From a virus: a stretch of 60,321 bases of DNA. The notes under the pieces were generated by a model. It did no database searches, had not been told where the DNA came from, and saw nothing but the letters and a program-made list of their open reading frames with translations. A program made the translations under genes and the position numbers. The stretch spans positions 1-60,321 of IMG/VR virus record IMGVR_UViG_3300025154_001315, one strand, 5' to 3'. Below, piece by piece: positions 18,272 to 37,487 of the stretch; position 1 is the first letter of the stretch, and every line of letters begins with the position of its first letter.

Positions 18272-18640
18272 ATGGGCCGCCGCATCCCCAGGGTGTACAA
18301 GATCCAGTCCAAGGACCCGGTGTTCAACAGGTTCCAGGACGAGATCGTCGCCGCCATCAACAGCCTTGCGGATGCCGTGGTCAACAGCGTGTCGACCATC
18401 GGGGGCGGTCATGGGGATGCGAGCACCGCTACTACCACTACGGACTCCGCCGGGTGGTACGAGGAGACGTTCTACTACCCCAGCCCGCTCGTGCTGAGCA
18501 GGACGCCGCTGCGCAGTAGTATCATGGTCTTCAAGAATGGCCTGCTGGAGCGCAGCTGGACGCTCAGCGGGCGGTTGGTGGTTCTGGTGTCAGCTCTTAC
18601 TGCCGAGGATGCCCATGTCGTCATTCGCTACCAAGTCTAG
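18272..18640 (+). CDS. Hypothetical tail-region protein
   Basis: 122 residues, ATG one base after the previous stop. Basic helical N-terminus (RVYKIQSKDPVFNRFQDEIV), a Gly/Ser/Thr linker, then a beta segment ending ALTAEDAHVVIRYQV. The end resembles short phage fiber-attachment domains. Overlaps the next gene's start by 26 nt. Confidence 0.6.
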   Translation: MGRRIPRVYKIQSKDPVFNRFQDEIVAAINSLADAVVNSVSTIGGGHGDASTATTTTDSAGWYEETFYYPSPLVLSRTPLRSSIMVFKNGLLERSWTLSGRLVVLVSALTAEDAHVVIRYQV

Positions 18641-19796
18641 CTTGCTGGTCCTGACGTTGCTGGCCGCCTCCGTCGCCGTGGCGCAGATCACCACGCGGCA
18701 GGCGCGGACAACCGGAGTCCCCGTGGCGGTGGGGGCGCCAGACGCTGGTAGCAACGGGAGCAGCGCCAGCTTCGCGCGGCTGGACCACGTCCACCCGGCA
18801 GGTTACGCTACGACGGCGGAGAGCTTGCTCGCCGACGGGGCGGACTGCACGGCTGGTACTCAGTGCGCCATCGGGGTGGACCAGAACGGCAACGCCGAGG
18901 GGTGCTGGACGCCGGCCAATCCAGTGTCTGATTGCTCTATCGGTGAATTCGTTGACTACATCAACGGGGCCTCGGTGGGCTGCAACCCGGAAGATGACCC
19001 TTCCGTCCCCAGCTGCACCGAAGATCAAATAATCCGCATGGGCGTGACAGCTTGGGGGTGCGGCGCGGCCGTCGAAGCCGAGACTGACCCCACCGTTCCT
19101 GCGGCTGCGATCTGCAGTGATGGCGACTACATGGGCGTGAACGGAACTGCCTGGGACTGCGAGACACCGCCGGTGCTGCACGACATCGCGGAGGCTGGGA
19201 GTTGGAACGGCGGCGCAGGCTGCAGCAGCACCCTTGACGCCCCGGTTTGGAACCAAACGACGCACGAGTGGAACTGCCAGACGCTCATCGCCCTGAACTA
19301 TCTCACCTGTTCGACGGGGCAGGTCCCGCGCAACAACGGGTCCTCGACGGCGTGGGTCTGCGACACGATGGGGGCAGCGTCGAAGAAGCTCTCAGGTGAC
19401 CAGAGCACCACGTCTACCACCTACGGCAATGTGAGCGGATTCTCGTGGACGGCGGCTGCGAGCACTGCTTACGCGGTGGACTGCTACTTCTCCTACAAGA
19501 GTGCGGCGACCACCACTGGCATCGGCCTCGCGTTGGCCGGGCCGGAGAGTGCTACCTTCTCCTACTCGGTCCACATCTGGGAGGGCTCTACCTTTGGTTT
19601 GGTATCCAACCAGAACGAGCCCGCCGCGACGCCAACTACCACCGACGTCGATGCTGCGGATACCTACTACTTCGCCAACATCAAGGGCTTCGTCATCGTA
19701 TCCGGATCGTCAGGGACCATCACGGTGCAGATGAAGTCTGAGGTCGACAGCTCCGCAGTGACTCTTCAAGCCGGTTCCTGGTGCCGCGTAGAGTAA
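18615..19796 (+). CDS. Putative tail fiber protein with a Sec signal peptide
   Basis: 393 residues from ATG 18615 (ATG 18609 is an alternative; an extension to 18537 is out-of-frame overlap with the previous gene). Residues 1-23 (MSSFATKSSLLVLTLLAASV then AVA) form a textbook signal peptide. Then comes the phage-fiber signature GSNGSSASFARLDHVHP, a Cys-rich middle with pairs in repeated settings (TEDQIIRMGVTAWGCGA), and a C-terminal beta domain (TAYAVDCYFSYKSAA). Export of a tail fiber is unusual. The Cys content suits disulfides formed outside the cytoplasm. Confidence 0.65.
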   Translation: MSSFATKSSLLVLTLLAASVAVAQITTRQARTTGVPVAVGAPDAGSNGSSASFARLDHVHPAGYATTAESLLADGADCTAGTQCAIGVDQNGNAEGCWTPANPVSDCSIGEFVDYINGASVGCNPEDDPSVPSCTEDQIIRMGVTAWGCGAAVEAETDPTVPAAAICSDGDYMGVNGTAWDCETPPVLHDIAEAGSWNGGAGCSSTLDAPVWNQTTHEWNCQTLIALNYLTCSTGQVPRNNGSSTAWVCDTMGAASKKLSGDQSTTSTTYGNVSGFSWTAAASTAYAVDCYFSYKSAATTTGIGLALAGPESATFSYSVHIWEGSTFGLVSNQNEPAATPTTTDVDAADTYYFANIKGFVIVSGSSGTITVQMKSEVDSSAVTLQAGSWCRVE

Positions 19797-19806
19797 GGAG
19801 ACCACA

Positions 19807-22761
19807 ATGGCTCTTCAACGACAGACGGTTGCCCTGCCGTTCGCCACGGGCATCGACACGAAGACCGACCCCAAGCAGGTCCAGATGGGGAAGCTGCTCG
19901 CCTTGCAGAACGGCGTGTACCGCACCCCCAAGGCCGTGAGCAAGCGGTACGGAACGGCGAAGCTCGGAGATACGCTGTTCAGCGCCAAGAGTCTGCATAC
20001 CTATAAGGACGAGCTGCTGGATCTTGAGAACACTGGCTCACTGAAGACCATTCCTAACGACAGCGCGGCGACGGAGAAGGGAGATGTGCCGACTGGGGTT
20101 CTCAGCACCTCCCCAATCGTGGCGAACACGAGCGACAACTACAGCGCGGACAGCGCCTATGCCAACGGCTACTGGATGCACTCTTGGGTCGTCCTGGCCA
20201 GCGACGGTCTGTCCTGCACGCTGTACTACTCCGTGGTGGATGCCGCGACCGGGGCCGAAGTGCTGGCAGGCTACGAGGCCAACACTTCCCCCAAGGTGCG
20301 CCCGCGCTGCCTCGCACTCGGCACGAAGCTGTTCCTCATCTACTACTGGGACACGGCCGGAACGATGGTGTTCCGCTCCATGGACACCGAGGCTACCCCC
20401 GCCATCGGCAACCGCACCTCCATCGGTGGCTGTACCAATACCGGCACCTTCGACGCGGTGACCATCGGCTCTGCCATCTACCTTGCCCACCAGGAAGACG
20501 CCACGACCATTCGGCTCACGAAGCTGATTGCCGACGGCACTTCCATCAACATTAGCATCACGGCGGCGTCTGCGGCCTTCGCCATTACGGTCTTCGCAGA
20601 TCGCACTGATACTCCGAGCGTGGTGCTGGCTTGGAACATCACCGGGCATCTGTACTACGCGGGCTACGCTGTGGCGGACCTCGCCGAAGTGCAGGCTCCC
20701 GTGGATCACACGCACACGATATACTCGGACGTGCTGACCGGTGCGTCGTTCGAGGGAAGCTCCGGCGGAGAGTTCTCAATCTTCCTGGGGGCACACTACG
20801 TCTCAGGCATCGACGCTGTCTTCAAAGTAGACGTGTCCGGCTGGGCGGCCACCCCAGCTACGGAGTCTGCGGAAGTGGTGCGCGATGTGCGACTGGTGGG
20901 CAAGGCGTTCGTCGACGATATCAACGACAGCGGGATGTACCTCCCGCTCATCCATACCAGCTCGCTTCAGTCTACGAACTTCCTCTACAACGTCTACACC
21001 TTGCAGTGGGCGGCCCGCTGGAACTATGGAACGGCCTACCGGCAGGCGTACAGCTCCACCGTCACGCGAGCGCTGGCGAGTTCCTGCATGTACACCAACG
21101 CTGCGGGAGATACTTGCTGGTCCATGGCGACTGGCGTGCGAAGCCCTCTGGCTGACCTCTCAGACTCCTCACTGCCTGTGGGCGCGCAGCTCACCACTTG
21201 GAACTTCACCGAGGAGACGTACAAGAACCTCGCGTTGGAGCTGGCGGGGGCGCTGCACTTCTCCGGTCCGCAGCTCACCATGTACGACGGTCGAAACATC
21301 GTGGAGCACGGCTTCTACCTGTGGCCCGAGGGCGTGACCGTCACCGGCACCGAGAGTGGCGGCACGGACGACGCCAACAAGTACGGCTACGTCGTGGTCT
21401 ACACTTGGGTGGACAACTTGGGGCAGGTTCATCGCAGTGCCCCCAGCCCAGTCGTGCAGTACATTCTCAACGATCCTGATCTCAACATCGGCGTGGGCGG
21501 AGTGGATACCACCGTCACCATTCCGCGGCTGAGCATTACCAACAAGACCGGAGTGCAGGCCGTCATCTACCGAACCGAAAAGGCAGGGGGTATCTACTAC
21601 AAGCTCGGCATGACCGCGTGCGGTCCCGCCGCGGGTGACGACGATACGACGTTCGCGGACACCGTCACCGACGCTTCGCTCGTGGCGGGTACTACGCTGC
21701 TCTACACGATGGGTGGAGTGATGCCCAACGCCTGCGCCAACCCCTGCCTGTGTCCCACTGAGTTCCAGGGACGGCTCTTCTACGTCGACTCCGTCAACCG
21801 CTACCGCATCATGTTCAGCCAGCAGGTCGTCAGCAGCAACGGCGGCGCGGCCAGCCCCGTGGAGCTGGTGGACGACTTCTTCATCGGGCTGCCAGAGACC
21901 GGGGGCCCCTGCACTGGCATCGGCGTGCTGGACGAGAAGCTCATCTTCTTCAAGAAGGACCGGCTGTTCCAGTTCGTCGGTCAGCTTCCGGACGTCTTCG
22001 GCATGAACGCGAACTACACGGTTCAGCAGCTCCAGATGAACATGGGCACGGAGGAGCCGAGGAGCATCGTCAGTGGCCCTGACGGGCTGTTCTTCCGCAG
22101 CGCGATGGGCTTGGCCATGCTGGATCGCAGCTTGCAGTCGTCGCTCGTGGGGTACGACGCCGACGGGCTGCTCACCGGCACCGTGGTCGGGGCGGTGGTC
22201 GTGCCAGACCAGCATCAGGTGCGCTTCACGCTGAGTGGCACGGTCACGCTGGTCTACGACTACCTCGCCAAGCAGTGGAGCCACTTCACGCACTCCGCCG
22301 ACGGGCTGAGCGCGGTGCTCTACCAGGATCTGCACGTCCGCCTGGGCGACGATGGTGTCCTCCTCCAGGACGACGTCACCACCTACGCGGACAACGGAGT
22401 GTTCGTTCCGTACTCCATGACGACGTCCTGGGTGCAGTTCTCCAATCTCCAGGGGTTCCAGCGGGTGCGCCGCGCCCTGCTGGTCGGGGAGTGCCTGGGG
22501 GTTTGCTACGTCAACGTCAGCGTGTACTATGACTACCAGACCCCTGTCGTACAGACGTTCGCCTCCTTTGAAGCATCCCCCGCCACCGTGCCGTTCAAGC
22601 ACAGGTACGATCTGGCACGACAGAAGTGCTCGGCGCTGAAGCTGGTCATCAGCGACGCCGAGAGCAGCGACCCGTCTTGCGGAATGTCGTTCTCCGCGCT
22701 GACGTTCGAAGCTGGGATGAAGCAGGGCAGCGACAAGGTGCCTGCCTCGCAGGCGGACTAG
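19807..22761 (+). CDS. Large tail hub/nozzle-like structural protein
   Basis: 984 residues, beta-rich throughout. The opening (LPFATGIDTKTDPKQVQMGK, LLALQNGVYRTPKAVSKRYG) is the pattern of podovirus tail nozzle proteins (tail tubular protein B-like), and WP/beta-propeller-like strands follow. The middle FQGRLFYVDSVNRYRIMFSQ and DVFGMNANYTVQQLQMN are typical of the same class. Follows adaptor and fiber genes, where the nozzle is expected. Confidence 0.7.
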   Translation: MALQRQTVALPFATGIDTKTDPKQVQMGKLLALQNGVYRTPKAVSKRYGTAKLGDTLFSAKSLHTYKDELLDLENTGSLKTIPNDSAATEKGDVPTGVLSTSPIVANTSDNYSADSAYANGYWMHSWVVLASDGLSCTLYYSVVDAATGAEVLAGYEANTSPKVRPRCLALGTKLFLIYYWDTAGTMVFRSMDTEATPAIGNRTSIGGCTNTGTFDAVTIGSAIYLAHQEDATTIRLTKLIADGTSINISITAASAAFAITVFADRTDTPSVVLAWNITGHLYYAGYAVADLAEVQAPVDHTHTIYSDVLTGASFEGSSGGEFSIFLGAHYVSGIDAVFKVDVSGWAATPATESAEVVRDVRLVGKAFVDDINDSGMYLPLIHTSSLQSTNFLYNVYTLQWAARWNYGTAYRQAYSSTVTRALASSCMYTNAAGDTCWSMATGVRSPLADLSDSSLPVGAQLTTWNFTEETYKNLALELAGALHFSGPQLTMYDGRNIVEHGFYLWPEGVTVTGTESGGTDDANKYGYVVVYTWVDNLGQVHRSAPSPVVQYILNDPDLNIGVGGVDTTVTIPRLSITNKTGVQAVIYRTEKAGGIYYKLGMTACGPAAGDDDTTFADTVTDASLVAGTTLLYTMGGVMPNACANPCLCPTEFQGRLFYVDSVNRYRIMFSQQVVSSNGGAASPVELVDDFFIGLPETGGPCTGIGVLDEKLIFFKKDRLFQFVGQLPDVFGMNANYTVQQLQMNMGTEEPRSIVSGPDGLFFRSAMGLAMLDRSLQSSLVGYDADGLLTGTVVGAVVVPDQHQVRFTLSGTVTLVYDYLAKQWSHFTHSADGLSAVLYQDLHVRLGDDGVLLQDDVTTYADNGVFVPYSMTTSWVQFSNLQGFQRVRRALLVGECLGVCYVNVSVYYDYQTPVVQTFASFEASPATVPFKHRYDLARQKCSALKLVISDAESSDPSCGMSFSALTFEAGMKQGSDKVPASQAD

Positions 22762-22771
22762 GGAGCTTGGA

Positions 22772-25700
22772 ATGCCGTTGTTCACCGATATGGTGAAGAC
22801 CGCCACGGCGCGGAAGACCGGTTCGAGCGGGTTGGCCCTGGGCGGCAAGCAGCCCAGGGTCTTCCCGTTCGACAGGGAGCCTGCGACGCCCGGCCTGCTG
22901 GACGGTGTGGCGAGCAGCAGCGTCGCGGGGCAGTACAGCGCTCCTGTGGCCTCGCCGGAGCCGGTAGCGGCCCCCACACAGGCCCCCGCCCCAAAACCGC
23001 AGGGCGATGCCTCCCTGCCCTTCGAGAGCGCCTCCGCAACCCCCGCCGCACCCCTGCCTTTTGCGCCCCCGCCAGAGCAGGTTGACGGGCTGGTGCTACC
23101 CGACATGAGCGTGGGCGACCCCGATGCCTTCACGGGTGAGGCCTTCGACCCGTACTCGGACGACGGCCTGGACGCCTGGGGCTTCGACAGGGAGGGCTTC
23201 GGCAAGGACGGGTTCAACAAGGCCGGCTACGACCGCGAGGGCTACAACCGCGACGGCCTGAACGCTGCGGGCTACGACCGTGACGGCCTGGGCTGGGGTG
23301 TGATGAAGCCCGATGACTTCGAGCCGCCCTACAACCCGAAGTACGACACGAAGAAGGATGGAGACCAGCGGTTTGATATGGGCGGCGCCAGGACGCGCAC
23401 GGCCGCCGAGAAGGCCGCCGCCGCAGAGAATTACCAAGGAGGGTCTGACTTCGTCGGCGATGCGGACGAAGAGGAAAGGCCCGGCCCTCCGGGCTCCAGC
23501 ACCGGCACCGACGCGCCGGATTACCACGAAGGTGGAATCGTAGGCTACGCAGAAGGAGGCACCGTGTCCAGTCCAGTGTGGGGCTACGACGTCATCAACG
23601 GCGTTCGTACCGACGGCAACGAGCAGGCACGCAACGATCAGCTCGCCTACATCCAGCAGTTGCAGGAGCTCGCGGCGGGGCGGGGCCCCAGCGCGGCCCG
23701 TGCTCAGCTCATGCTCGCGATGACGCAGAACCAGAACAACATGGCGGCGCAGGCGGCGAGCGCGCGGGGCATCAACCCCGCGCTGGCGCTGACCAACGCC
23801 CTCCGCCAAGGGAGCATGGCCAATCAGAACAGCGCAGGGCAGGCTGCCCTGCTCAGGGCGCAGGAGCAGCTCGCCGCCACGGGGCAGCTTGGCACTGCGC
23901 TCGGGCAGATGCGTCAGCAGGATCTGCTCAGTTCGCAGCTCTCGCAGCAGGCCGCTCTCGCCAACCAGAATCGGCTCGACAACATCCTGGGAGCGCTCAT
24001 CACGGGAGGTGCATCCGCGCTGGCCAAGAGCGGGCTCGGTGGCGGGGGTGGAGGGATGCCCAGCAGCAAGGGCGGCGACGGCCCCAGCACCGATGTCGGT
24101 TCCAGCGGGCTGGCGCTGGGCAGCAAGGACGGCAAGCCCGGAGCATCCCCGTTCAGCGACGACAAGGTGTACGCCGATGACTTCTACATCCCCGGCGTGA
24201 CCCCTACCACGACCATCAGCAGCGGCGACGTGGGTAACAGCAGCGTCAGCACCACCGAGGGGCTGGACCAGGGACCCGCCCCGCTGCCCGAGCAGCCTGC
24301 CTTCGACGTCAGCGGCGCGGAGATGCCCTTCTACGACGCGCTGCCTCCGGGCGGTGGCGTGCTGAGCGAGCTTCCTTCCGACATCCCGGTGATGGTCGGC
24401 GGTGAAGAGCTCGGCGGTGATCTCGTCCCCGAGCCCGCTCCGCTCGAATCCCTGCCCGAGCTGGATATGCAGATCCAGCCCACCGAGCCTGACTTCTTCC
24501 TGCCGGAGGAGAAGCTCGAAGAGCCGGTCTACGACCCCTACGAGGACAACTACGGCGGGGACTTCCCGTCTTCCGACGAGAGCGAGGCCCCCAGCGAGCC
24601 TGTGGAGACGGAGGCTCCTCCCGAGCCCGCCGATGACGACGAAGACCCGAACGACTGGACCGGGGAGGAGTGGTTCAGCGGCGGCATGGCCGGGACGCAA
24701 GACCTGGACGACGAGGGTGGCCCCGTGCCGGGTGAGCCCAAGTACCCCGGCGTGGACCACCCCGCCAACGACACCGTGGACGCGGAGCTGACCCCGAAGG
24801 AGGTGGTGCTGCCCCTGAGCGTGACGCAGTCCGCCAATCCGCCGGAGGCGGCGCGGGCCTTCATGCAGTCCGTCATGGACCAGGAGGAGGGCGAGCCGGA
24901 CTACGGCGACGTGCTGGAGGCGCGGCGGTTCGCGGAGGGTGGAGAGGTCCCTGCCGCAAAGCCCAGCTTCATGGACAACGTGCGAAAGGGCTGGAGCGAG
25001 TTCGACATGAAGGGCGCTCTGGCGGACGCAGTCAAGCAGAGCGTCGTGGGAGGGCTGGGCGCGGGCATGAACACGGTCAGCGGCAACATCCCCAAAATGC
25101 TGTCCGACGTCTATGCCCCGTTCGCCCCCGCCGTGGACAAGCACATCACCCGCCCCGCCCTCAACGCGGCGGGGCAGCACCTGAGCCCCAAGGGCGAGCT
25201 GGCCATGCGCTCCATGGCGCAGGGGTTGCTCAACCCCATCGAGGGCGTGAGCCCCGGCGACCAGCTCGATGAGTACGGGATGACCCCGAAGGGCCGAGGG
25301 GCGGTGGAGGACACATCCCCCGCCGCCATGTTCGCCATGACGCAGGTGCCCAACCTACTCATGGGCGCGGCGTCCAGGTTGCGGCCCGCCGCCGCTCCGG
25401 CCTCGCGTGGCGCGCAGTGGGACGCCTACCTGAAGGCGCAGGGCAAGCCTGCGCTCAAGGCGGCTCCGCCCCTGGCTTCGCCGGAGAGCACCCGCGCTGC
25501 CCCCGCGTCGTACGTTGCCGATGTCCGCGACATCGACGATCTGCTCAACCTGAACGTCAGGCGCGAGCCCGTCGGTGGCGACTTCATGGCGATGGAGAAG
25601 GCGCAGATCTTCGACAGGAAGAGCAAGGGCCCCATCAACATCGACCCGCCCGGCAAGGTGACTCCGGCCTTTGAGCGCGCCCCCGACACCGACCTCACCG

Positions 25701-25969: not shown

Positions 25970-26160
25970 AGGCGCTTGAAGTTCTTGCGGGCCTTGCAGA
26001 TGACGGTGTAGTCGTCACGGTTGCCAGGAGTACACAGCGAGCGGTCTTTGGCCTTGCAGGGCATGTCGCACAGGTGGTCATTGCAGCAAATCCACCTTCC
26101 GCCGGTAGTGCCCTCGGCGGGTGTCTGATACAGGAAGGGGCACCGCACGTCTTTGGTCAT
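25966..26160 (-). CDS. Cys-rich small protein, minus-strand moron
   Basis: 64 residues. ATG 26160 has AAGGAG 6 nt upstream. Eight Cys (VRCPFLYQ, WICCNDHLCDMPCKAKD, SLCTPG, VICKARK) and no His pairs suggest disulfides or a small zinc site. It is the only gene on the minus strand inside the 28-kb late operon, and its stop codon overlaps the convergent upstream stop (TTAG). That is the usual sign of an inserted, independently transcribed gene. Confidence 0.65.
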   Translation of the reverse strand: MTKDVRCPFLYQTPAEGTTGGRWICCNDHLCDMPCKAKDRSLCTPGNRDDYTVICKARKNFKRL

Positions 26161-26245
26161 GTGGCTCTCCTTGTTAAGTGCTACCCTTGCCTACATGGTA
26201 CGCCCCGCAAACCCGATAGCAAGGCCCTGGGCCCGGAGAAACTAG
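26161..26245. promoter_or_regulatory. Divergent gap before internal protein 2
   Basis: 85 bp between a minus-strand gene and the next plus gene. GCTACCCTTGCCTACATGG at about 26181 resembles the GCTACCTTGTA promoter element. It could restart late transcription after the inserted gene. Confidence 0.35.
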
Positions 26246-28042
26246 ATGCCCTTCAAGAATCCCGAGGCGAAGAGCCAGAGCGACAAGAGCTACTACCAGG
26301 ACCACAAGTTCACGGTCCTGGGCGAGAATTCCGCCTTCTTCAACCTGCGCTCCCCCACAGGGCAGACGGTGCGGGTGGCCAAGGCGGGGTTGAGTCCCAC
26401 CACCCTGGAGCGCATCCGGGGCTTCAACCCGCCGCAGAAGATGGCGGGGGGCGGAGAGGTGGAGGAACAGGCCGAGCAGACGAGTCCGCTACTCGACGAG
26501 CCCGGGGAAGGTGAGACGTTCGACCCATCCGCAGGCAGCCCTGAGCTCGGCGTATTCGATTACATCGCTCCCGCTGGCGAGGGCAAGGCCCCTGTGGGCC
26601 CCCTGACCCCCAAGATCGCCCAGGCGGCGAGCGCAGTCGCAGACATTGTCGCGCCGAAGCAGACGGTTCCGTTCGACCAGTCCATTCCGGATGCGTCCTC
26701 CGCGCAAGGCAAGACGGCTCCCGGCCTGACTCCGTTCATGCCGGTGGACAAGTTCATGGCGGAGTCGGACAAGCTGCCCGGCGTGCTGCCGGAGCCGCCA
26801 CCGCCCCCCGAGGACGACGAGGCGATGAACGATTTCACGCTCAGGTTGAAGAACCTGATGCGCGACGCAGCCAGCGCGTCCTACGTCGGGCGCCCCAACA
26901 TGCCCGAGTTCCCGGAGCTGAGCTTCGACGGGCTGGCCGACATGAAGACGCAGGAGAAGCTCCTGGGCGTGGCGGGGGCGCTGGCCAAGGAGCGCGAGGC
27001 CGCCGCCCTGGAGAACTACCTGGGCAAGAAGAACGAGCTGGGCGCCAAGCAACAGGAAGAGCTCGCCAAGCGCAACGCCGCCACCGCCGAGAAGATGAAG
27101 GACATCGAGAACACGCGCATCAACCCCAATCAGTTCTGGGAGTCGAAGAGCAACGGGGACCGCGCCGTGTCGCTCATCAGCATCATCCTGGGCGGGCTGG
27201 GCGCGGGGCTCCAGCGGTCCAACACGAACCAAGTGCTCCAACTCCTGGAGAAGTCCGTGGAGCAGGACGTCGAGGCGCAGAAGGCCAACCTGGGCAAGAA
27301 GCAGAACGCCCTCAGCATGTACATGGCCGAGACGCGTGACATCAAGGAGGCGCAGAAGCTTGCCGCCGCCGACCTGTACGACGTGGTGGCTACGCAGATG
27401 AAGATTGCCGCCGCCAAGTCCGGCAGCGAGCAGGCGCTCATCCTGGGCAACCAAGCCGCCGCGAAACTCCAGTGGCAGGCGACGCAGTATCGTCAGGGCT
27501 ACCTCCTGCAGAAGTATGGCGGCGAGATGGACAAGGCCAAGATGGAGCTTCAGCGCAACGTCGCCAACGCGAACATGCAGGCCCAAGCGGTGAAGGCCAA
27601 GCTCAAGCAGTACAACGACGCCCGTGCCCTCATGGTCACCGGGCCGGGCGGCAAGCGGTATGTCGCCAAGTCGCCCACCGACTACAAGGCGGCGCAGGAG
27701 AAGATGGTAGGCTGGCAGACCGTGATGGGTCCGCTCAGGGAGTTGAGGGGGCTGTATGCCAAGGATAAGATGGGCATCTGGAACCTGCTCTCCGACAAGG
27801 CAGCGCAGGCGGAGGTCTACCAGAAGATCCTCACGCAGACCATCGCCCGCGCCAACGAGCGCGGCGTGCTGTCTGACAAGGACCGCAAGTTCTACACCGA
27901 CCTCGTTGGCACGCCCATCGGCCTGAAGCCCAACTCCAGTCAGTACGGGGCGCGGCTCTCCGCACTGAGCGACGTCCTGGACAACGCCGTGATGTCAGCG
28001 CTGTCCGTCCACACCGAACCGCTGGACACCGCGCTGCGCTAG
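26246..28042 (+). CDS. Internal-virion-like protein 2
   Basis: 598 residues. After a short ordered start (FFNLRSPTGQTVRVAKAGLS), Pro/Glu-rich linkers lead to a long helical core: EKLLGVAGALAKEREAAALE, LLEKSVEQDVEAQKANLGKK, AAAKLQWQATQYRQGYLL. NGDRAVSLISIILGGLGAGL is a single hydrophobic segment that could be membrane-active. Helical, Gln/Ala/Lys-rich proteins in this position are ejection proteins that form the trans-envelope channel. Inference from composition and gene order. Confidence 0.6.
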   Translation: MPFKNPEAKSQSDKSYYQDHKFTVLGENSAFFNLRSPTGQTVRVAKAGLSPTTLERIRGFNPPQKMAGGGEVEEQAEQTSPLLDEPGEGETFDPSAGSPELGVFDYIAPAGEGKAPVGPLTPKIAQAASAVADIVAPKQTVPFDQSIPDASSAQGKTAPGLTPFMPVDKFMAESDKLPGVLPEPPPPPEDDEAMNDFTLRLKNLMRDAASASYVGRPNMPEFPELSFDGLADMKTQEKLLGVAGALAKEREAAALENYLGKKNELGAKQQEELAKRNAATAEKMKDIENTRINPNQFWESKSNGDRAVSLISIILGGLGAGLQRSNTNQVLQLLEKSVEQDVEAQKANLGKKQNALSMYMAETRDIKEAQKLAAADLYDVVATQMKIAAAKSGSEQALILGNQAAAKLQWQATQYRQGYLLQKYGGEMDKAKMELQRNVANANMQAQAVKAKLKQYNDARALMVTGPGGKRYVAKSPTDYKAAQEKMVGWQTVMGPLRELRGLYAKDKMGIWNLLSDKAAQAEVYQKILTQTIARANERGVLSDKDRKFYTDLVGTPIGLKPNSSQYGARLSALSDVLDNAVMSALSVHTEPLDTALR

Positions 28043-28051
28043 GGGACTTCG

Positions 28052-31000
28052 ATGCCCGAGAACTCGAAGTACATGGTGGACAGCAGCGGCGGCATCCGTC
28101 AGGTGCCTGCCGCTGAAGTAGCAACCAAGCTGAACACCGGCTGGCTTCCCGCCAGTCCCGAGCAGATCAAGCAGGCCGAGCGCGACGAGCGAATGAACGT
28201 TGGCGAAGCCGTGGCGGCGGGGGCCTTGGCGGCGACGCGCACCGCCACGATGGGTCTCAGCGACTTGGCTTACACCGAGTCTGGCCTGTTGGATGCGGAG
28301 CAGATCACCGACGTCAAGGAAGCCTACCCCGTCGCCAGCGGAGTAGGCACGGCGGCCGGCATCCTTGTCCCACTGGCGGTCTCCGGCGGGTCCAGCGCGC
28401 TCGCGCAGGGCGCGAAGGGCGGAGTGCAGGCCGCCGCCCGCGCGACCATGCCCGCAGTGGCCAACCGCCTTGGCCGAGCGGTGGAGTCCAAGGTGGCGGG
28501 GGCGCTGGCGCGGGACGGCCTGGGGCTGGCCGAGCGCGTGGCGGCCAAGGCCGTGAGCGCCGGAGCCGGGAACGCCGTGGAGGGCGCGTTCTACGGCATG
28601 GGCAACGTGGTCAGCGAGTACGCCCTGGGCGACCCGAACTTGACAGCCGAGTCTGCCGCTGCTGAGGTCGGCTTCTCGGCGCTCATGGGGGCTGGGGTCG
28701 GAGGCGCGCTGGGAGCTGCCGGCGAGACCCTGCCCGCCGCGCTGGGCATCGCCGGGCGCAAGGTGCGGAGCGTGAAGGACTATCTGGTGGAGAAGTACCC
28801 CGCCACCGCCGCCAAGCTGACCGGTCACAGCGAGGATAAGGTCCGATTCCTGCTGGAGAACCGGCACCTGAAGAACGCGCCCGAGGAGTGGCGCAAGGTC
28901 GAGGAGAGCTTCATCCGCAGCATGGACGACACGACCCTGGCGGACTCGCAGTACATCCGCGCCCACGACGACCTCGCGCCGCTGGCCCGCGAGGAGCTCG
29001 CGGCCACTCTGCCCCAGGAGCGCGCTCACGCCGCGCGCGAGGAGCTGCTGGCTCAGGCTGAGGACATGCTGGCGGCCATGCGCGCCGATCCGCTGAACTT
29101 CGAACACTACGACTACAGCAAGATTCTCAAGAACATCGAGAACTACAAGAACACCACCGGCCCCGAGACGGCGAGCCTCCAGCGCAGGCTGGCGGGCCTG
29201 CACGAGCGGTGGATGCGCGACCCCGCCGCCTACCTCGACCCCGAGCCCTTGGCTCAGCCCGCCGACACGCTGGCCCAGGCCCTGAGCGCCGTGGACGAGC
29301 TGCCGGTGCCGCAGGCCGCTGACCTCGCCAAGAAGGCGGAGATCCGAGCGGCGGTGGAGGCGGAACGGGCAGCTCAGGCCCGCGCCCTGGACCCGAGCAC
29401 GAAGGACGCAGCCCAGGAAGCCGCCATCCGCGCCGCCAAGGACGCCGCGCTCCAGACCAGCCCCCAAGCCATCCGCGCTGCGAAGATCGCGGCGATGGCG
29501 GCCAAGTACGAAAAGGGCTCCCCGCCCATCATCGGCAAGGAGACGGCGGGGCGCTTGGCCAAGGAGTACGCCGCTGCCCAGGCCATGCCGAGCAGCAACG
29601 TCGTCGAGAAGATCACGCGCGACGAAGCCCTCAAGTCCCTGGAGAAGCGAGCCGCCAAGGAGGCCTTCGAGGAGGCGAAGCGGCTGGGGCTGGACTTGCC
29701 GGGGCGCGGAGAGGCCAGCCAGACGGCTGTTCACCTGCTGAAGAACCCGAAGGACACGGCCCTGTCCGCAGCAGATGCCAATATTCTCCGGTCAGAAGGC
29801 GCGTGGGCCAAGGAAGAGCCGAACTATCTGTTCTCGGCCTTCAAGGACACGGTCAAGGATTTGGAGGCGTTGTTCAGGAAGGCGAAGAAAAAGGCCTCCA
29901 GTGGAGTGGGCAAAGGCACCGCCAGAAGCGACAACAACCTCGCCTCCACGTCCATCGCCGACCGAGCAGTCGCGCTGCAAGAGTTCCTCAACAAGGACAT
30001 GCAGCGCATCCGCGACGCCACGCCGGAACAGTGGCCCACGCTGGAGAAGGAGTTCAAGAAGTTCTACGCTGACGCTGAGGAGCTGATGACTCCGGCAGGC
30101 GGCAAGGGCGGCAACGTGGCGGAGGTGCGAGAGCCCGTGCTCAAGGCTCTGCGCCGTATGCGCGACGTGGAAGCGCCCCCTAAGCCCGCCCAGGCCCCTG
30201 CCAAAGCCGCTCGAGAGGCCCTCGAAGCGCCCCCGGCCGCCCCTGCGCCCACCCCAGCCCCGCCCCAGGCGGTTGCTCAGGAGGCCGTTCAGGAGGCCCT
30301 GCCGCCCGCGCCCCCCATGCTGCACCCCAAGGCAGCGGCGGCCCTGGACCGCGTGGAGGCGACCCGCGCCGCGCTGGAGACCGCTACGCACCAGGACCTC
30401 CCGGCGCTCCGCAAGGCGCTGCGTGAGGCAGCGGAGAGCTTGGAGGCCGAGCTGCCCCAGCACGCCGCCCAGCTCCGCAAGATGGACAAGCTGTTCGGCT
30501 CCGCCGCCCGCGCCCCGGCGGAGATCCTGCACAAGACCACGCAACTCCGCAACAACCTCGTGGACCTGCTGCCCGAGGACGGCCGGCTCATCCGCGGTTC
30601 GAAGGAGAACGTCTACAAGAAGGCCAAGGAGCTGGCCGACGATCTCAGCCGCGCGCTGCACGACCCCAACCGCTGGGGCACCGCCGCCAGCGGAGTGGAG
30701 CGGATGGAGACGGCCAGGGTCCTGCTGGAGAAGGCGCGGAAGAACCTCGTCGACGGCGAGGCCAAGCTGCTCCGCCCCGCCCGTCACGGCTACGCGGTGG
30801 ACGTGCCCAAGGTGCGCGCCTTCTTCAAGGAGTTCGACACCCCCGCCGGCGAGCGCCGCCGCCAAGCCCTGAGCAACTACCTGGAGGCCGGCGCCCGCTA
30901 CGCCGACGAGTTCAACGCGACCTACAGCACCCTCAAGCCCAAGGACCTGAATGCTGAGGCGCTGAAGTCTCTGGTCAGCAAGACCGGCGACGCGGCGCAG

Positions 31001-31957
31001 CAGATGCGAAAGCAGGGCCTCCTGGAGCAGTACACCAAGGAGCTCGCCCCGGAGCCGGGTGGTCTGAACGCTGCCTTGCTGAAGCCCGCGCTCGGCGGCT
31101 ACGCTTTCGGCGGTACGGGCGCGGCGCTCGGCGCGCTGCACGGAGCTTATGGGCTGAGCAAGAACGTCCCCGCCGCCGTGGCTGCGCTGGCCAACCTGGA
31201 ACGCGCGGCCAAGGCCGTGTCCAACCGAATGGACAACGCCGTGAGCACGCTGGTCCGTCACGGCGTCAAGGCGTGGAAGGTGGGGCGCGGCGAGGCGGCG
31301 GCGGGGCTGGGCAGCATCTTCGCCAAGCCCTACGAGAAGTCGGAGAAGAGCTACTCCAAGCACTCCGCTGAGATGAACCGGCTGGCGCAGGATCCGCAGG
31401 CGCTGGCGGATACGCTGGCCCGCCAGACCGGCAGCTTGACTCAGCACGCCCCCGACACTGCCCTGGCGATGCAGCAGACCACGGTGCGTGGCGTGATGTA
31501 CCTCGCCAGCCTCGCCAGGAAGATGGGCGCGGGCGGCGCGCTGGCGGCGGAGTGGCGTCCCAGCCGCACCGACATCATACTCTACAACCGCGCGGCGGAG
31601 GTGGTGGAGAACCCGGAGGTGGTGATCAAGCAGGCGGCGGCCGGGACCTTGACCGTAGAGGCAGTGCAGGCGCTCAAGGCCGTGTACCCCACCTACCACT
31701 TGGAGCTGACCCGTCGCATCTACTGGATGCTGGCGGAGCTGAAGACTCCGCCGGACTTGCAGACCCGGAATATGCTGGGGATGTTGCTGGAGCAGGACCT
31801 GGATGGGACCAGCGCACCCCAGGTATTGCTGTCGAATCAGGCAGCGTATACCATGCCTGACAGGAAGGACAACGCACGGCCTTCGCAGCGCAGTGGAGTC
31901 ACCGTGTCCGACCGCGCGCTCACCGCAACGCAGCAGACCGAAAAGGAGCAGCCATGA
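28052..31957 (+). CDS. Internal-virion-like protein 3, very large
   Basis: 1301 residues. The N-terminal 250 contain hydrophobic Gly/Ala-rich helices (ASGVGTAAGILVPLAVSGG; VGFSALMGAGVGGALGAAG) that look membrane-interactive. The central 700 are long Ala/Glu/Lys/Arg helices with heptads. A second glycine-rich hydrophobic stretch lies near residue 1020 (GGYAFGGTGAALGALHGAYG). This mix fits a large ejection protein forming the periplasmic channel. No transglycosylase motif found. Four-base overlap with the next start (ATGA). Confidence 0.6.
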   Translation: MPENSKYMVDSSGGIRQVPAAEVATKLNTGWLPASPEQIKQAERDERMNVGEAVAAGALAATRTATMGLSDLAYTESGLLDAEQITDVKEAYPVASGVGTAAGILVPLAVSGGSSALAQGAKGGVQAAARATMPAVANRLGRAVESKVAGALARDGLGLAERVAAKAVSAGAGNAVEGAFYGMGNVVSEYALGDPNLTAESAAAEVGFSALMGAGVGGALGAAGETLPAALGIAGRKVRSVKDYLVEKYPATAAKLTGHSEDKVRFLLENRHLKNAPEEWRKVEESFIRSMDDTTLADSQYIRAHDDLAPLAREELAATLPQERAHAAREELLAQAEDMLAAMRADPLNFEHYDYSKILKNIENYKNTTGPETASLQRRLAGLHERWMRDPAAYLDPEPLAQPADTLAQALSAVDELPVPQAADLAKKAEIRAAVEAERAAQARALDPSTKDAAQEAAIRAAKDAALQTSPQAIRAAKIAAMAAKYEKGSPPIIGKETAGRLAKEYAAAQAMPSSNVVEKITRDEALKSLEKRAAKEAFEEAKRLGLDLPGRGEASQTAVHLLKNPKDTALSAADANILRSEGAWAKEEPNYLFSAFKDTVKDLEALFRKAKKKASSGVGKGTARSDNNLASTSIADRAVALQEFLNKDMQRIRDATPEQWPTLEKEFKKFYADAEELMTPAGGKGGNVAEVREPVLKALRRMRDVEAPPKPAQAPAKAAREALEAPPAAPAPTPAPPQAVAQEAVQEALPPAPPMLHPKAAAALDRVEATRAALETATHQDLPALRKALREAAESLEAELPQHAAQLRKMDKLFGSAARAPAEILHKTTQLRNNLVDLLPEDGRLIRGSKENVYKKAKELADDLSRALHDPNRWGTAASGVERMETARVLLEKARKNLVDGEAKLLRPARHGYAVDVPKVRAFFKEFDTPAGERRRQALSNYLEAGARYADEFNATYSTLKPKDLNAEALKSLVSKTGDAAQQMRKQGLLEQYTKELAPEPGGLNAALLKPALGGYAFGGTGAALGALHGAYGLSKNVPAAVAALANLERAAKAVSNRMDNAVSTLVRHGVKAWKVGRGEAAAGLGSIFAKPYEKSEKSYSKHSAEMNRLAQDPQALADTLARQTGSLTQHAPDTALAMQQTTVRGVMYLASLARKMGAGGALAAEWRPSRTDIILYNRAAEVVENPEVVIKQAAAGTLTVEAVQALKAVYPTYHLELTRRIYWMLAELKTPPDLQTRNMLGMLLEQDLDGTSAPQVLLSNQAAYTMPDRKDNARPSQRSGVTVSDRALTATQQTEKEQP

Positions 31958-32547
31958 AGAAGCTGACCAAGATGCAGAAGTTGCTTGCCGTGCTGGTGGC
32001 CGTCTTGGTCCCCGGCAGCGTCATCGCCGGGAGCATTAGCCTCACCACCCCCAGCGGGCAGCAGAAGCCGCTGCGCGGCGACGAGCACGGCGCGGCCTAC
32101 ACCACGCTCAACACGCGCGCCGCCGATGGCGGCGCGCTGCCCCCGCAGCAGGTGACGCCCGTCAGCCCCGACGGCGGCGCCCCTGCCTTCCGCGAGTCTC
32201 CGTACATCTCCACCACCGAGGGATGTATGCAGGTAGAGTGCAGCCTCGTCGGCGACGCCGGCGTCGTGCGCGGCGTCATCCCGGTGGATGGGGGCACCTA
32301 CTACCCGCAGGCCGGTGTTCGGTATGTGGCCGTCACCACCTCCGCCACTGGAGTTCGCGTTCACAACCAAGCCTGCAACTCCTACTTGAGCGGCGCCGGG
32401 CTGCTCCTCAATGAGGGCCTGACACTCGGCTTCTACGGCCCCAAGAACCCCGACGGTGGCGTCGGCGACCTCGCGATGCACTGCTGCTCTCTGGCCGCGA
32501 GCAGCGCCAGCGCCCCAGCCCTGTTCCAGCTCTGCCCGGAGCCGTAA
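31954..32547 (+). CDS. Secreted structural protein with signal peptide
   Basis: 197 residues. KKLTKMQKLLAVLVAVLVPG then SVIAG is a Sec signal peptide with likely cleavage after about residue 26. The mature part is beta-rich with several Cys (GCMQVECSLVGD, QACNSYL, HCCSLAASS) suited to disulfides. Overlaps the upstream stop by ATGA and is followed directly by another signal-peptide gene. Likely a tail or receptor-binding component exported before assembly, or a surface protein; no family recognised. Confidence 0.6.
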   Translation: MKKLTKMQKLLAVLVAVLVPGSVIAGSISLTTPSGQQKPLRGDEHGAAYTTLNTRAADGGALPPQQVTPVSPDGGAPAFRESPYISTTEGCMQVECSLVGDAGVVRGVIPVDGGTYYPQAGVRYVAVTTSATGVRVHNQACNSYLSGAGLLLNEGLTLGFYGPKNPDGGVGDLAMHCCSLAASSASAPALFQLCPEP

Positions 32548-32548
32548 G

Positions 32549-34420
32549 ATGCGCTACTTGATTCTCCTCTGCGCGCTCTCGCTGCTCGCGCCGTCGCGCG
32601 GTGCGGCTCAGTCGCTCGACCTCGGGCTGTCGCTTGGCGGCGGGGCGCGGGTGAGCACGTATAGCGGAGCCGTCGACTGGAGCCGCTCGTGGAGCGCGGA
32701 CTGGCCGAGCGGGATTCCGGCGCCGACGATTGAGTGCGAGGCGGACGCGGACTCGTTCGACTGCACTGGCGCGACGGCGAGCGTCGTCGGGGCGCCCACC
32801 TACGTCACGGCGGCTGGATACCCGGAGCGGTGGGCAGCGCGATTGAACGGGACGACGGACTACTACACACTGGGGGACATTGGCGACCCGTGGACCGATT
32901 ATTCAATCTGCATCCAGTTCAATACGTTGGCTGTTGCAGCAAATCGCCGGATTGTGACCAAGGGGGGGGCGGGTGGCGATGCGCTCATTCTGCGTGTCGA
33001 AAACAGCGGTGTCTTGAAGTTCTACGCATTCAGCGCGGTGTCGAACTCTAGCATCAGCTCGGCTGCGCTGTCCGTTGGGGTATGGAACACAGCCTGCGTC
33101 AGCTACGATTATGTTGCAAACGGCACCAGCATCATGCGGATGAATTTGAACGGCGTGGAATCGACGCCCGTCACCAACGCAGTTGGCCCTGCTCCAGATG
33201 TTGCAGAGCCCCTGAAGGTCGGCGCAGCTGGCGGCGTGATCGGTGAATACTTCAGCGGGGACGTGCTGAGTGTGCGCGTCTGGTACAACGCGCTATCCGC
33301 GTCGGAGCAGGCGCTGTGGGTCGCCAGCCAGCAAGCCCGCCTCGCGGCCAAGCCGGTGAACGCGCTGGTCACGGTGTCCAGCGGCGCCACCACGGCAATC
33401 GGCACGAGCGGGACCATGTACTCGCTGCCGGCGAACTCCCTCGCGTGCGGCGCGGCCGGGTGCGAAATCTGGAGCGCGGCGGCGCATTCCAATCTGCTCA
33501 CCAACTCCGAGAGCGGGAACGCCGGAGCCACAACCGTGAACTACGAGGCCGGCCCACAGGGCGGTTCGCCTACCGCCGAGCGGTTCACCATGAACACGAA
33601 TGTGGAAACCGTCTGGCAGTCCTCTGTGGCGGCCGGAACGACGCTAGCAAACAAGATGTTTTACTTGTCAGTCTGGCTCAAGGCAGTTTCAACACCGTGT
33701 TCTGCATATTTCGGAGCCACTGACACAAACGCCTGGACCGCCGGGCAGGCAGTTCAACAGGCGTGCTCAATCGGAACGACATGGGGGCGGTGCCTGATTC
33801 CTGTGGTGTACGGATCTGGTGCGCTTGGTTCCACGGCAGGCGTCGTGGGTCCCAGCACGAAGGGCAGACTGGGCAATCCTGATCTACCCGCCTGCGACCT
33901 TTCTGCGGTCAACATCAAGTTTGAGTTGTCCCCTGTCGCAGGCCCCTACGTCGCGACTGCCGGGACGCCGGTGGCCGGGGCGGCGGATTCGTCTTACACC
34001 GACGACACGACTGGCAAGATCACCGATGCGCGCGGGTGCGTGGCCGCCGAGTTCACGGTCAACGCATGGACGGCTAACGCACGTGCGGTCGGCTTCAACG
34101 GGGCGGCGGTTCCCGGCCTCAGCATCAACGCCACCAACAGTTTCAGCCTGTGGGATGGCACTGCGCCCGTAGTCCTCAACTCCGTGTCCTGCCCCGGCAG
34201 CGTCTGCCGTGTACTCGCGTGGTGGAGCGGGTCCGCGATGGGCCTGCTGGACCTCAACGGAGGCGGCTCGTCGTCTGGAGCCTATGACGGCACCATGTTT
34301 ACCGGCACGCCGCGCCTGTTCCAAGCTTCGCAGAGCGGCACAGCCAATCACCTGAACGGCCCATTCAAGCGCCTCGTGTGGGGCCGCACCTTGAGCGAGT
34401 GCCGGAGGATGCCGCAATGA
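32549..34420 (+). CDS. LamG/concanavalin-like receptor-binding candidate with signal peptide
   Basis: 623 residues. ATG 32549 follows the previous stop by one base; a longer frame from 32456 overlaps the previous gene and is rejected. MRYLILLCALSLLAPSRGAA is a signal peptide. Residues 45-240 read as a LamG-type sandwich (RWAARLNGTTDYYTLGDIGD, LSVRVWYNALSASEQALWVA). A second related domain follows (SFSLWDGTAPVVLN, KRLVWGRTLSECRR). Carbohydrate-binding sandwiches of this kind are common in phage adhesins. Third exported product in a row. Confidence 0.65.
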   Translation: MRYLILLCALSLLAPSRGAAQSLDLGLSLGGGARVSTYSGAVDWSRSWSADWPSGIPAPTIECEADADSFDCTGATASVVGAPTYVTAAGYPERWAARLNGTTDYYTLGDIGDPWTDYSICIQFNTLAVAANRRIVTKGGAGGDALILRVENSGVLKFYAFSAVSNSSISSAALSVGVWNTACVSYDYVANGTSIMRMNLNGVESTPVTNAVGPAPDVAEPLKVGAAGGVIGEYFSGDVLSVRVWYNALSASEQALWVASQQARLAAKPVNALVTVSSGATTAIGTSGTMYSLPANSLACGAAGCEIWSAAAHSNLLTNSESGNAGATTVNYEAGPQGGSPTAERFTMNTNVETVWQSSVAAGTTLANKMFYLSVWLKAVSTPCSAYFGATDTNAWTAGQAVQQACSIGTTWGRCLIPVVYGSGALGSTAGVVGPSTKGRLGNPDLPACDLSAVNIKFELSPVAGPYVATAGTPVAGAADSSYTDDTTGKITDARGCVAAEFTVNAWTANARAVGFNGAAVPGLSINATNSFSLWDGTAPVVLNSVSCPGSVCRVLAWWSGSAMGLLDLNGGGSSSGAYDGTMFTGTPRLFQASQSGTANHLNGPFKRLVWGRTLSECRRMPQ

Positions 34421-34923
34421 GCCCCAAGATCCTCGGCGTCCTCGCCATCGTCGCAGCAGGCGCAGGCGTCGCGCTCAGCGCGGGCGAAGCGGTGGACGTG
34501 GACGCGGTGGCCACGGCAGAGGACGGCAGCAAGAGCGTCGTGACCGTGCGCTGCAAGGCGGGCGCGAAGGCCGAGGAGATGGACTGCGGCGACCTCCCGG
34601 CGAACGTGGAGCCGGTGGCGCTGACCGCGAGCGCGCCCTACGTCACGCTCTCGGCTGCGGGCACGAAGGAGGCGCGCGAGCAGCCTTGCGCGTGCGGGCC
34701 GGTGGACGGCAAGCGGGTCTGCACCGTCCTCGACGCCGAGGGTGAGCGGCCAGCGCGCCCCGGCGAGCACCTCGCGGCCGGGACGTGGCAGGGCGCGTGC
34801 GCGCCTAAGCCCTGCTTCGAGCATGCCGCCGTCATCGCCCAGCGCGGCCTCGGCTACGCGCAGCCCGTCGCGTGCGGCGGCAGGGCGGCGAAGGAAGCAG
34901 CAGAGATAGGAGGAGCACCATGA
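34417..34923 (+). CDS. Exported Cys-rich protein
   Basis: 168 residues from ATG 34417 (ATGA overlap with the previous stop). MSPKILGVLAIVAAGAGVAL then SAG is a signal peptide or N-terminal anchor. The mature part has seven or more Cys (VRCKAG, MDCGDL, QPCACGPVDG, VCTVLD, GACAPKPCFEH). Next gene overlaps by ATGA, and the segment belongs to the lysis-proximal cluster. Possibly an exported virion or envelope-acting protein. Family not recognised. Confidence 0.55.
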   Translation: MSPKILGVLAIVAAGAGVALSAGEAVDVDAVATAEDGSKSVVTVRCKAGAKAEEMDCGDLPANVEPVALTASAPYVTLSAAGTKEAREQPCACGPVDGKRVCTVLDAEGERPARPGEHLAAGTWQGACAPKPCFEHAAVIAQRGLGYAQPVACGGRAAKEAAEIGGAP

Positions 34924-35177
34924 CGAAGAACGAAACCGCTACCTGGGTCCGCTGGTCCATCGGAGTTCTCGTCACGCTGGTCTTGGCCCTGGGTGGCTAC
35001 GCCCTGGCCCAAGACCGAAAGGTGACTACCCTGGAGGTCCAGCAGAAGTACACCGACCAGAAGGTGAGCGACGTGCTCCAGCGGGTGGAGGCGCTGCTCA
35101 ACAAGCAGGAACCGGTGATCGAAGCGATGAAGAGACACATCGCAATCGACGAGCGCGACTGGAAGGCTTCCAAGTGA
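34920..35177 (+). CDS. Membrane-anchored coiled-coil protein, spanin/Rz-like candidate
   Basis: 85 residues, AGGAGGAGC ribosome site, ATGA overlap upstream. One N-terminal transmembrane segment (WSIGVLVTLVLALGGYALA) followed by a periplasmic coiled coil (TLEVQQKYTDQKVSDVLQRV, EALLNKQEPVIEAMKR). This is the topology of an i-spanin. The next gene is a peptidase, which supports a lysis role. No outer-membrane partner is certain. Confidence 0.6.
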   Translation: MTKNETATWVRWSIGVLVTLVLALGGYALAQDRKVTTLEVQQKYTDQKVSDVLQRVEALLNKQEPVIEAMKRHIAIDERDWKASK

Positions 35178-37062: not shown

Positions 37063-37067
37063 GTTGG

Positions 37068-37468: not shown

Positions 37469-37487
37469 GATGTTCCTCCTACGGTGA

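What the first reader, a model, noticed from the sequence alone, without database searches (positions are those of the whole stretch)
18615..34923. Several late proteins with Sec signal peptides
Products at 18615, 31954, 32549 and 34417 start with convincing signal peptides and are Cys-rich or LamG-like. Phage virion parts are normally assembled in the cytoplasm. Export would permit disulfides and attachment outside, or these could be cell-surface proteins made during infection, for example to alter receptors.
Basis: seen in the sequence. Interest (0 to 1): 0.5.

Follow-up and report, generated by a model that had tools for sequence, protein, structure and literature searches.

The report
Phage tail fibres with export signals
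This bacterial virus appears to build its receptor-gripping proteins with the tag cells use to send proteins out of the cell, a feature also present on the tail fibre of two laboratory Myxococcus phages, which hints that part of the virus particle may be finished outside the cell interior.

Summary
Observation confirmed. My rule-based score gives 6.6-9.3. In the E. coli calibration 20 of 21 known exported proteins score 6.5 or more and 0 of 47 cytosolic ones exceed 4.9, but 4 of 20 membrane proteins pass 6. They hold 44 Cys, beside three proteins with none in 2,964 residues.

The window is a circularly mapping 60.3-kb SU10-like phage. ORF 18615 sits in the tail-fibre slot between adaptor and tail protein; 0 of 27 slot genes in 14 relatives carry a signal. 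ORF 32549 has a LamG domain and a sub-threshold head-spike-fibre domain. The 32549-34417 pair recurs in an unrelated tailed phage. Three of 11 relatives carry signal-bearing adhesin-like genes downstream of the same late gene.

Strongest support: Myxococcus phages Mx8 and Mx9 have a 28-residue signal exactly before a tail-fibre N-domain. Of the best 80 (of 241) viral-contig homologues of that domain, 79 start at the domain without a signal; the exception is an Mx8-identical record.

Best reading: receptor-binding fibres made as Sec precursors and joined to virions at lysis. Export is likely; virion attachment is inferred. The rival is receptor blocking at the cell surface.

The parts
18615..19796 (+). 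Signal peptide (res. 1-23) + Cys-rich fibre-like protein (DHVHP motif at res. 57, Cys pairs, beta-rich C-terminal ~120 aa); occupies the tail-fibre slot between adaptor and tail protein
   Evidence: SP score 7.5; slot comparison with 14 relatives; motif scan; no family match; model poor, only C-terminal strands reach pLDDT 60-75
31954..32547 (+). Signal peptide (res. 1-25) + 172-aa mature protein, 6 Cys, no relatives found; first gene after the 22772-28052 block
   Evidence: SP score 9.3; ATGA overlap with 28052; no match in phages
32549..34420 (+). Signal peptide (res. 1-20 or 1-22) + Laminin_G_3 domain (100-253) + head-spike-fibre-like domain (312-479)
   Evidence: SP 6.6; PF13385 E=1.4e-12; NF048003 E=1.5e-7, 32.1 bits, cut-off 36; homologue L013:9905-11788
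34417..34923 (+). Signal peptide or signal anchor + Cys-rich 168-aa protein; partner gene of 32549
   Evidence: SP 7.4; homologue directly downstream of the LamG gene in L013 (11785-12381), hydrophobic N-terminus kept, 5 shared Cys
17296..18270 (+). SU10-type adaptor; left border of the fibre slot
   Evidence: PF24175 E=1.8e-8; homologues in 18 of 19 relatives
18272..18640 (+). Small protein of the slot, no signal peptide; resembles by eye the ~100-aa slot proteins of relatives, no detectable homology
   Evidence: no family match
19807..22761 (+). Large tail protein; right border of the fibre slot
   Evidence: homologues in 15 of 19 relatives, 28-35% identity in G003
28052..31957 (+). Last of three Cys-free proteins (ejection proteins by position only); the signal-bearing genes follow it directly
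   Evidence: homologues in 12 of 19 relatives; no Pfam match
34920..35177 (+). Holin/spanin-like one-TM protein, start of the lysis genes
   Evidence: weak PHROG matches incl. Rz-like spanin (read from 34917); score 7.7
35174..35716 (+). Peptidase M23 endolysin
   Evidence: PF01551 E=1.2e-23

Best explanation
The four proteins are late, Sec-exported adhesins, and at least 18615 and 32549 are receptor-binding fibres of the virion. Proposed steps: (1) ribosomes make the fibre as a precursor whose signal peptide sends it through SecYEG into the periplasm (shown by sequence only); (2) signal peptidase removes the signal, leaving a mature N-terminus like that of an ordinary cytoplasmic fibre (supported by Mx8/Mx9 versus their signal-less homologues; inferred for the window); (3) the many cysteines pair in the oxidising periplasm, stiffening the fibre (inferred from Cys content); (4) capsids and tails, built in the cytoplasm, meet the fibres only when the neighbouring lysis genes open the cell, and the fibres then bind (inferred; recalled precedent: P22 tailspikes add to finished heads in vitro).
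For: Signal peptides beyond chance. Tail-fibre slot: 0 of 27 slot genes in 14 relatives has a signal; 7 of the 14 have an H-x-H-type fibre there (read by eye from the table), the window has 18615, whose H-x-H motif lies 34 residues after the predicted cut, as in those fibres it lies 34-35 residues from Met. Head-spike-fibre-like domain and LamG in 32549. Elimination: most late genes without a signal have homologues in relatives' head-to-tail blocks, the rest are small or lysis-type, so the visible fibre candidates bear signals. Similar position in relatives: signal-bearing adhesin-like proteins downstream of the 28052 homologue in G038 (second gene), G027 (third gene; 623 aa, 17 Cys) and G033 (tenth gene), 3 of 11 contigs that show that region. 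Cultivated precedent: Mx8p64 and Mx9_p14 (annotated 'putative tail fiber protein') score 8.5, and the predicted cut falls at the start of the fibre N-domain; of the best 80 of 241 viral-contig homologues, 79 have a start codon within 6 residues of the domain and no signal, the 80th being a 49,534-base record identical to Mx8 over the query.
Against: No proteomics, no cleavage data, host unknown. Most relatives' fibres have no signal; 8 of 11 contigs lack a signal-bearing adhesin-like gene after 28052. The share of signal-scoring proteins of >=120 aa is 4 of 41 in the window versus 17 of 452 in 19 relatives, p=0.09, and several of the 17 are plainly not secreted; in the shorter relative loci 10 of 1,221 genes passed at >=110 aa, none read as a fibre. 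Mx4 (1-50 kb) has 5 of 51 passing but none of its five proteins tested at 36907-42901 does; Mx1 (first 50 of 170 kb) 0 of 37. The LamG homologue of L013 has a short hydrophobic N-terminus (MHALAILAFALA) that fails my scorer and matches neither LamG nor the spike-fibre family. None of the 19 relatives has homologues of the four proteins. AlphaFold models were unusable. The Mx8 and Mx9 signals are identical in DNA, so they give no evidence of selection on the signal. The membrane between fibres and capsids until lysis is a cost this reading must accept.
Confidence: 0.5

Rival explanations
1. The proteins are exported but act on the infected cell, not in the virion: they coat or block receptors at the surface so that progeny do not re-adsorb to debris and late superinfection is prevented.
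For: Export is what the sequence shows. Lambda has a signal-bearing late protein, Lom, between its tail fibre genes. The genes 31954-34923 lie directly before lysis-type genes. LamG domains can bind surface glycans (general knowledge).
Against: 18615 fills the fibre slot and 32549 has a spike-fibre-like domain; if these are not virion parts I see no other receptor-binding protein among the late genes. Mx8p64 keeps the N-domain with which signal-less fibres begin. By inspection of the N-termini none of the four has a lipobox, unlike lipoprotein blockers.
Confidence: 0.27
2. The hydrophobic N-termini are uncleaved membrane anchors or virion-internal hydrophobic segments; no export of a mature protein takes place. 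Virions may pick the fibres up at the inner membrane.
For: 4 of 20 inner-membrane proteins pass the scorer; the best cut of 34417 lies inside its hydrophobic run; the L013 LamG N-terminus is short.
Against: Acceptable -3/-1 sites in 18615, 31954 and 32549; high Cys content of these proteins; in Mx8/Mx9 the cut falls at the domain border.
Confidence: 0.15
3. 31954-34923 are auxiliary (moron-like) genes for secreted host-type lectins, exchanged among phages of the same hosts and unrelated to 18615.
For: The 32549-34417 pair recurs in an unrelated tailed phage, L013; A1 matched none of 41 other records searched, and pattern scans of viral and genome contigs gave no further relative of 32549.
Against: Position inside the late operon with overlapping or adjoining starts, spike-fibre-like domain, and in L013 the pair lies between a tail-fibre-like and lysis-like genes (read by eye; only a weak Gp53-like match).
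Confidence: 0.08

Closest known systems
Myxococcus phages Mx8 and Mx9, protein p64 / Mx9_p14 (tail fibre)
   Same: Fibre-like protein behind a Sec-type signal peptide, in a short-tailed phage; neighbouring genes are also signal-bearing with 7 Cys each (Mx8p66, Mx9_p15)
   Different: No sequence similarity to the four window proteins; Mx8 and Mx9 are temperate and P22-like (PMC6070905, passages). In that review 'signal' and 'tail fib' occur 0 times
Bdellovibrio MAT (mosaic adhesive trimeric) fibres
   Same: Phage-tail-fibre-like trimeric adhesins that carry signal peptides and work outside the cell (PMC10769870, passages)
   Different: Cellular proteins for prey recognition; defining ~130-aa beta-rich domain after the signal not tested here; the window proteins belong to a phage late operon
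Head spike fibre domain NF048003 (gene transfer agents and phages)
   Same: Residues 312-479 of 32549 match nearly the whole profile (5-182 of 182), E=1.5e-7
   Different: Below the curated cut-off (32.1 versus 36 bits); position in the virion unknown; a signal peptide is not part of that family's definition as I know it (recalled)
Lambda Lom
   Same: Signal-bearing product of the late operon beside tail fibre genes
   Different: Outer-membrane protein (barrel recalled); the window proteins are Cys-rich, LamG- or fibre-like
Filamentous phage coat proteins (recalled, no call)
   Same: Virion proteins with Sec signal peptides
   Different: Assembled and extruded at the membrane without lysis; not tailed phages

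Membership tests
Sec signal peptide (signal peptidase I type) | Positive n-region, hydrophobic h-region, small residues at -3/-1 | tested here: met
   Scores 6.6-9.3 with calibration and controls; doubtful for 34417, whose cut falls inside the hydrophobic run
Sec signal peptide (signal peptidase I type) | Cleavage and export of the mature protein | not testable with these tools
   needs N-terminal sequencing
Phage tail fibre (18615) | Gene position of tail fibres in related phages | tested here: met
   Slot between adaptor and tail protein; H-x-H fibres there in 7 of 14 relatives, read by eye
Phage tail fibre (18615) | Sequence similarity to known fibre families | tested here: not met
   No match in Pfam, PHROGs, NCBIfam or phages; only a short DHVHP motif. 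Called fibre-like, not a member
Phage tail fibre (18615) | Trimeric fibre with beta-rich tip | tested here: inconclusive
   Single-sequence model, mean pLDDT 40; weak TNF/jelly-roll matches, best E=5e-3, none at 0.001
Laminin_G_3 / concanavalin A-like (32549) | Profile match above curated cut-off | tested here: met
   48.4 bits versus 27.6, positions 1-149 of 151; the L013 homologue does not match
Head spike fibre NF048003 (32549) | Profile match above curated cut-off | tested here: not met
   32.1 bits versus 36, E=1.5e-7, nearly full length; L013 homologue no match
Superinfection-exclusion lipoproteins (Llp-like) | Lipobox Cys at the cleavage site | tested here: not met
   By inspection of the N-termini; the only early Cys is C8 of 32549, inside the h-region and preceded by L, not a small residue
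MAT fibres of Bdellovibrio | Conserved ~130-aa beta-rich domain after the signal | not tested
   Sequences not fetched; feature read in PMC10769870

The most novel reading that the evidence does not exclude
Some tailed phages, Mx8 and Mx9 of Myxococcus and the window phage among them, assemble their virion in two compartments: capsid and tail in the cytoplasm, receptor-binding fibres as Sec-exported, disulfide-bonded periplasmic proteins that join the particle only at lysis. Signal peptides have been added to fibres independently in unrelated phage lineages.
Probability: 0.4. Interest if true: 0.85.

Novelty: new variant of a known kind. Interest (0 to 1): 0.6.

Why it matters
Tailed-phage assembly is taken to be wholly cytoplasmic (general knowledge). 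A receptor-binding fibre that must cross the inner membrane first would change how fibre attachment, disulfide use and lysis timing are understood, and would be useful for engineering oxidised fibres. It can be tested at once in Mx8, a cultivated transducing phage of Myxococcus xanthus, where the fibre N-domain carries an added module that 79 of the best 80 viral-contig homologues lack. I saw no report of a signal peptide on a tailed-phage fibre in the listings of nine searches of the open library (two listings were cut short), with passages or parts of four papers opened; that is not proof that none exists.

Tried and rejected
Relatives of the four proteins in named phages by tblastn: none for 18615, 31954 or 32549, nor for either L013 protein or the G027 protein; 34417 itself was not searched there. 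In viral contigs: none for 18615 and 34417, one (L013) for 32549; 31954 was not searched there. Genome contigs: A1 none; terminase alignment one Rhodobacteraceae MAG, so no host genome and no host assignment. 42 records searched for 18615 and for A1: 0 and 1 (L013) matches.

Structures: both AlphaFold jobs gave unusable models (mean pLDDT 40 and 32). Foldseek on 18615 gave no match at E<=0.001; its TNF-like rows are a hint at most. No solved-structure sequence match for 32549, and one chance-level row (E=0.21) for 18615.

Considered and dropped: chance hydrophobic N-termini; wrong start codons; a dual-start cytoplasmic form of Mx8p64 (the only start-like codons at residues 20-45 are 44 and 45, inside the domain); L013 as a relative of Mx4 (no L013 protein matched the Mx genes); RNA features (Rfam: none). 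Papers: phiCbK (PMC3556154, passages) concerned lysis; PMC10720576 read in part; PMC10769870 and PMC6070905 as passages; other papers seen only as listings.
Full report
What the window is. The window is an IMG/VR virus record of 60,321 bases. A second contig (L002/G001, 31,374 bases) is identical to it over its whole length and runs across its ends, joining window 42958-60321 to window 7-14142 with about 126 shared bases, so the genome maps as a circle. It is an SU10-like tailed phage: SU10_adaptor at 17296-18270, a weak SU10 major capsid match at 13371-14606, terminase at 8567-10105 (about 25% identical to T5-type terminases). The minus-strand half has DNA polymerase A, SNF2 helicase, thymidylate synthase and 5-hmdU kinase domains; no integrase was seen among the 30 window proteins scanned against Pfam. 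No named phage matched the late-region DNA in a near search.

The observation. All four starts are right and the N-termini have the three parts of a Sec signal peptide, least clearly 34417. My scorer was calibrated on 95 E. coli proteins and applied to 86 predicted window genes. Five of 13 late genes and one of 73 others pass; internal start codons pass at 4 of 644 (two of the four inside the membrane protein 35726); shuffled N-termini pass in 1.0 gene per genome on average, at most 4. The passing late genes are the four of the finding and the 85-aa lysis-type protein 34920. The four hold 44 Cys; the three proteins 22772, 26246 and 28052, taken as ejection proteins by position, hold none in 2,964 residues. 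Some other late genes, terminase and 10099, are also Cys-rich.

What the proteins are. 32549 has a LamG domain and, at residues 312-479, a nearly full-length match to the phage head spike fibre domain NF048003 that stays below its curated cut-off. 18615 has no family match, but lies between adaptor and tail protein. In 14 relatives where this slot is resolved (G019 left out because its two genes lie far apart on the contig; four contigs lacked one border gene), 27 slot genes were seen; none has a signal (highest score 3.0). In 7 of the 14 one gene is a fibre of the type GPxWA..N...D.H.H, read by eye from the listed N-termini. A stricter motif scan, [DSN]HxH within the first 110 residues, hit 8 of 1,166 proteins: 18615, three of those seven fibres plus the one of G019, and three unrelated proteins. 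The motif of 18615 lies 34 residues after its predicted cut; in the four fibres it lies 34-35 residues from Met. Sequence similarity between 18615 and the slot fibres was not detected. Most of the remaining late genes of the window have homologues in relatives (terminase, portal, scaffold, capsid, 15224, 16019, 17011, adaptor, tail protein, 22772, 26246, 28052); 14674, 15626 and 18272 (at most 148 aa) and the lysis-type genes have none. So the visible fibre candidates bear signals, though 16019 and 22772 have no assigned function and the argument is one of elimination.

Relatives. A scan with a terminase alignment gave 80 loci of 106 found; 18 long contigs were read over their whole length, plus G003. 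Downstream of the 28052 homologue, signal-bearing adhesin-like genes occur in G038 (second gene, fibre-like, cut by the contig end), G027 (third gene, 623 aa, 17 Cys) and G033 (tenth gene, 356 aa, no Cys), 3 of the 11 contigs that show genes there. G029 has two signal-bearing proteins elsewhere, between scaffold and portal. Overall 17 of 452 proteins of at least 120 aa in the 19 relatives pass the scorer against 4 of 41 in the window (p=0.09); several of the 17 are membrane, pilin-like or scaffold proteins. In the shorter loci 10 of 1,221 genes pass at 110 aa or more, none read as a fibre. Position and content therefore matter more than the bare score. None of the 19 relatives has a homologue of the four proteins.

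The mobile pair. L013, an otherwise unrelated phage contig with a baseplate gene and 70% GC, has homologues of 32549 (39% in the alignment) and 34417 (38%) as adjacent genes, between a tail-fibre-like and lysis-like genes by eye. The 34417 homologue keeps a signal-like N-terminus (score 7.4); the LamG homologue has a short hydrophobic one that fails the scorer and matches neither LamG nor the spike-fibre family.

Cultivated precedent. Of proteins of at least 120 aa, T7 (17-40 kb) has 0 of 14 passing and phiEco32 (1-45 kb) 0 of 31; P22 has 1 of 32 (Rz) and lambda (1-24 kb) 1 of 20 (Lom). Myxococcus phage Mx8 has 6 of 47: p64, p66, two lipoprotein-like and two membrane-like proteins; Mx9 (1-50 kb) has 4 of 46: the p64 homologue annotated 'putative tail fiber protein', a GDSL-like hydrolase and two membrane-like proteins. 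p64's predicted mature part begins TRNSVGTYTLPGGNPVV and p64 matches tail-fibre PHROGs, best E=4e-5. Homologues in Stenotrophomonas phage BUCT555 and Bradyrhizobium phage ppBjS10J-1 begin within about eight residues of the domain and score no signal. In viral contigs the domain was found 241 times; of the best 80, 79 have a start codon within 6 residues of it and no signal, and the one with a signal is a 49,534-base record identical to Mx8 over the query. So in Mx8 and Mx9 a signal peptide stands exactly in front of a fibre domain that other phages make without one. The Mx8 and Mx9 signals are identical in DNA, hence probably one event. Mx4 (5 of 51 passing, none of them fibre-like by eye) and the first 50 kb of Mx1 (0 of 37) show no such fibre, so this is not a rule for all Myxococcus phages.

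How it most likely works. Fibre precursors are exported by Sec, processed, oxidised and perhaps trimerised in the periplasm, and meet the capsids when the lysis genes, which follow directly, open the cell. The first step rests on sequence, the second on the Mx8 comparison, the rest is inference. The chief rival is action at the surface of the infected cell. That the window phage infects a myxobacterium is a guess from GC content, the Mx8/Mx9 parallel and one weak small-protein match (w57305 to Mx9 and Mx4); it was not tested.

Novelty. Tail fibres, LamG domains and Sec signals are each known; a Sec signal on the fibres of tailed phages was not seen in the searches listed under Why it matters. 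Bdellovibrio exports fibre-like adhesins of its own (PMC10769870, passages), which shows that such trimers can fold outside the cytoplasm and leaves open an exchange between phage fibres and exported adhesins in either direction.

Noticed in passing
window 3-794 (-), repeat array 230-721: 15-base tandem repeat, about 33 copies, inside a 264-aa minus-strand gene; five-residue (ADLRS-like) repeats, probably a pentapeptide-repeat protein (name recalled).
   Followed up: no
window 35726-36379 (+): Lysis-region membrane protein with an internal start-like codon (codon 74, GTG) followed by a lipoprotein-like signal (LGLSVLGTSAC); possible holin with an embedded in-frame outer-membrane spanin.
   Followed up: no
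window 50106-51236 (-), 53016-53969 (-), 53966-55156 (-): Thymidylate-synthase, 5-hmdU kinase and FkbM methyltransferase domains in one region: possibly hypermodified thymidine DNA.
   Followed up: no
L105 13098-13694 (-) and 13998-14555 (-) (contig G019): Two proteins with type IV prepilin-like N-termini (GFTLVELMIVV / GFTLIELMIVV; motif recalled) encoded by a relative of the window phage.
   Followed up: no
L141 6467-7192 (Mx9_p15): Signal-bearing, 7-Cys GDSL-like hydrolase (Pfam match below cut-off, PHROG lipase E=2e-11) directly after the signal-bearing tail fibre of Mx9.
   Followed up: partly
window 16218-16461 (+): 102-base repeat, 2.4 copies, inside gene 16019-17008 between capsid and adaptor.
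   Followed up: no
window 7-132 and 60196-60321: About 126-base direct repeat of the ends, implied by L002, which joins them: circularly permuted or circular genome.
   Followed up: partly
L092-L093 (contig G029 39314-40995, -): Two adjacent signal-bearing Cys-containing proteins (120 and 434 aa) between the scaffold and portal genes of a 61.6-kb relative.
   Followed up: partly
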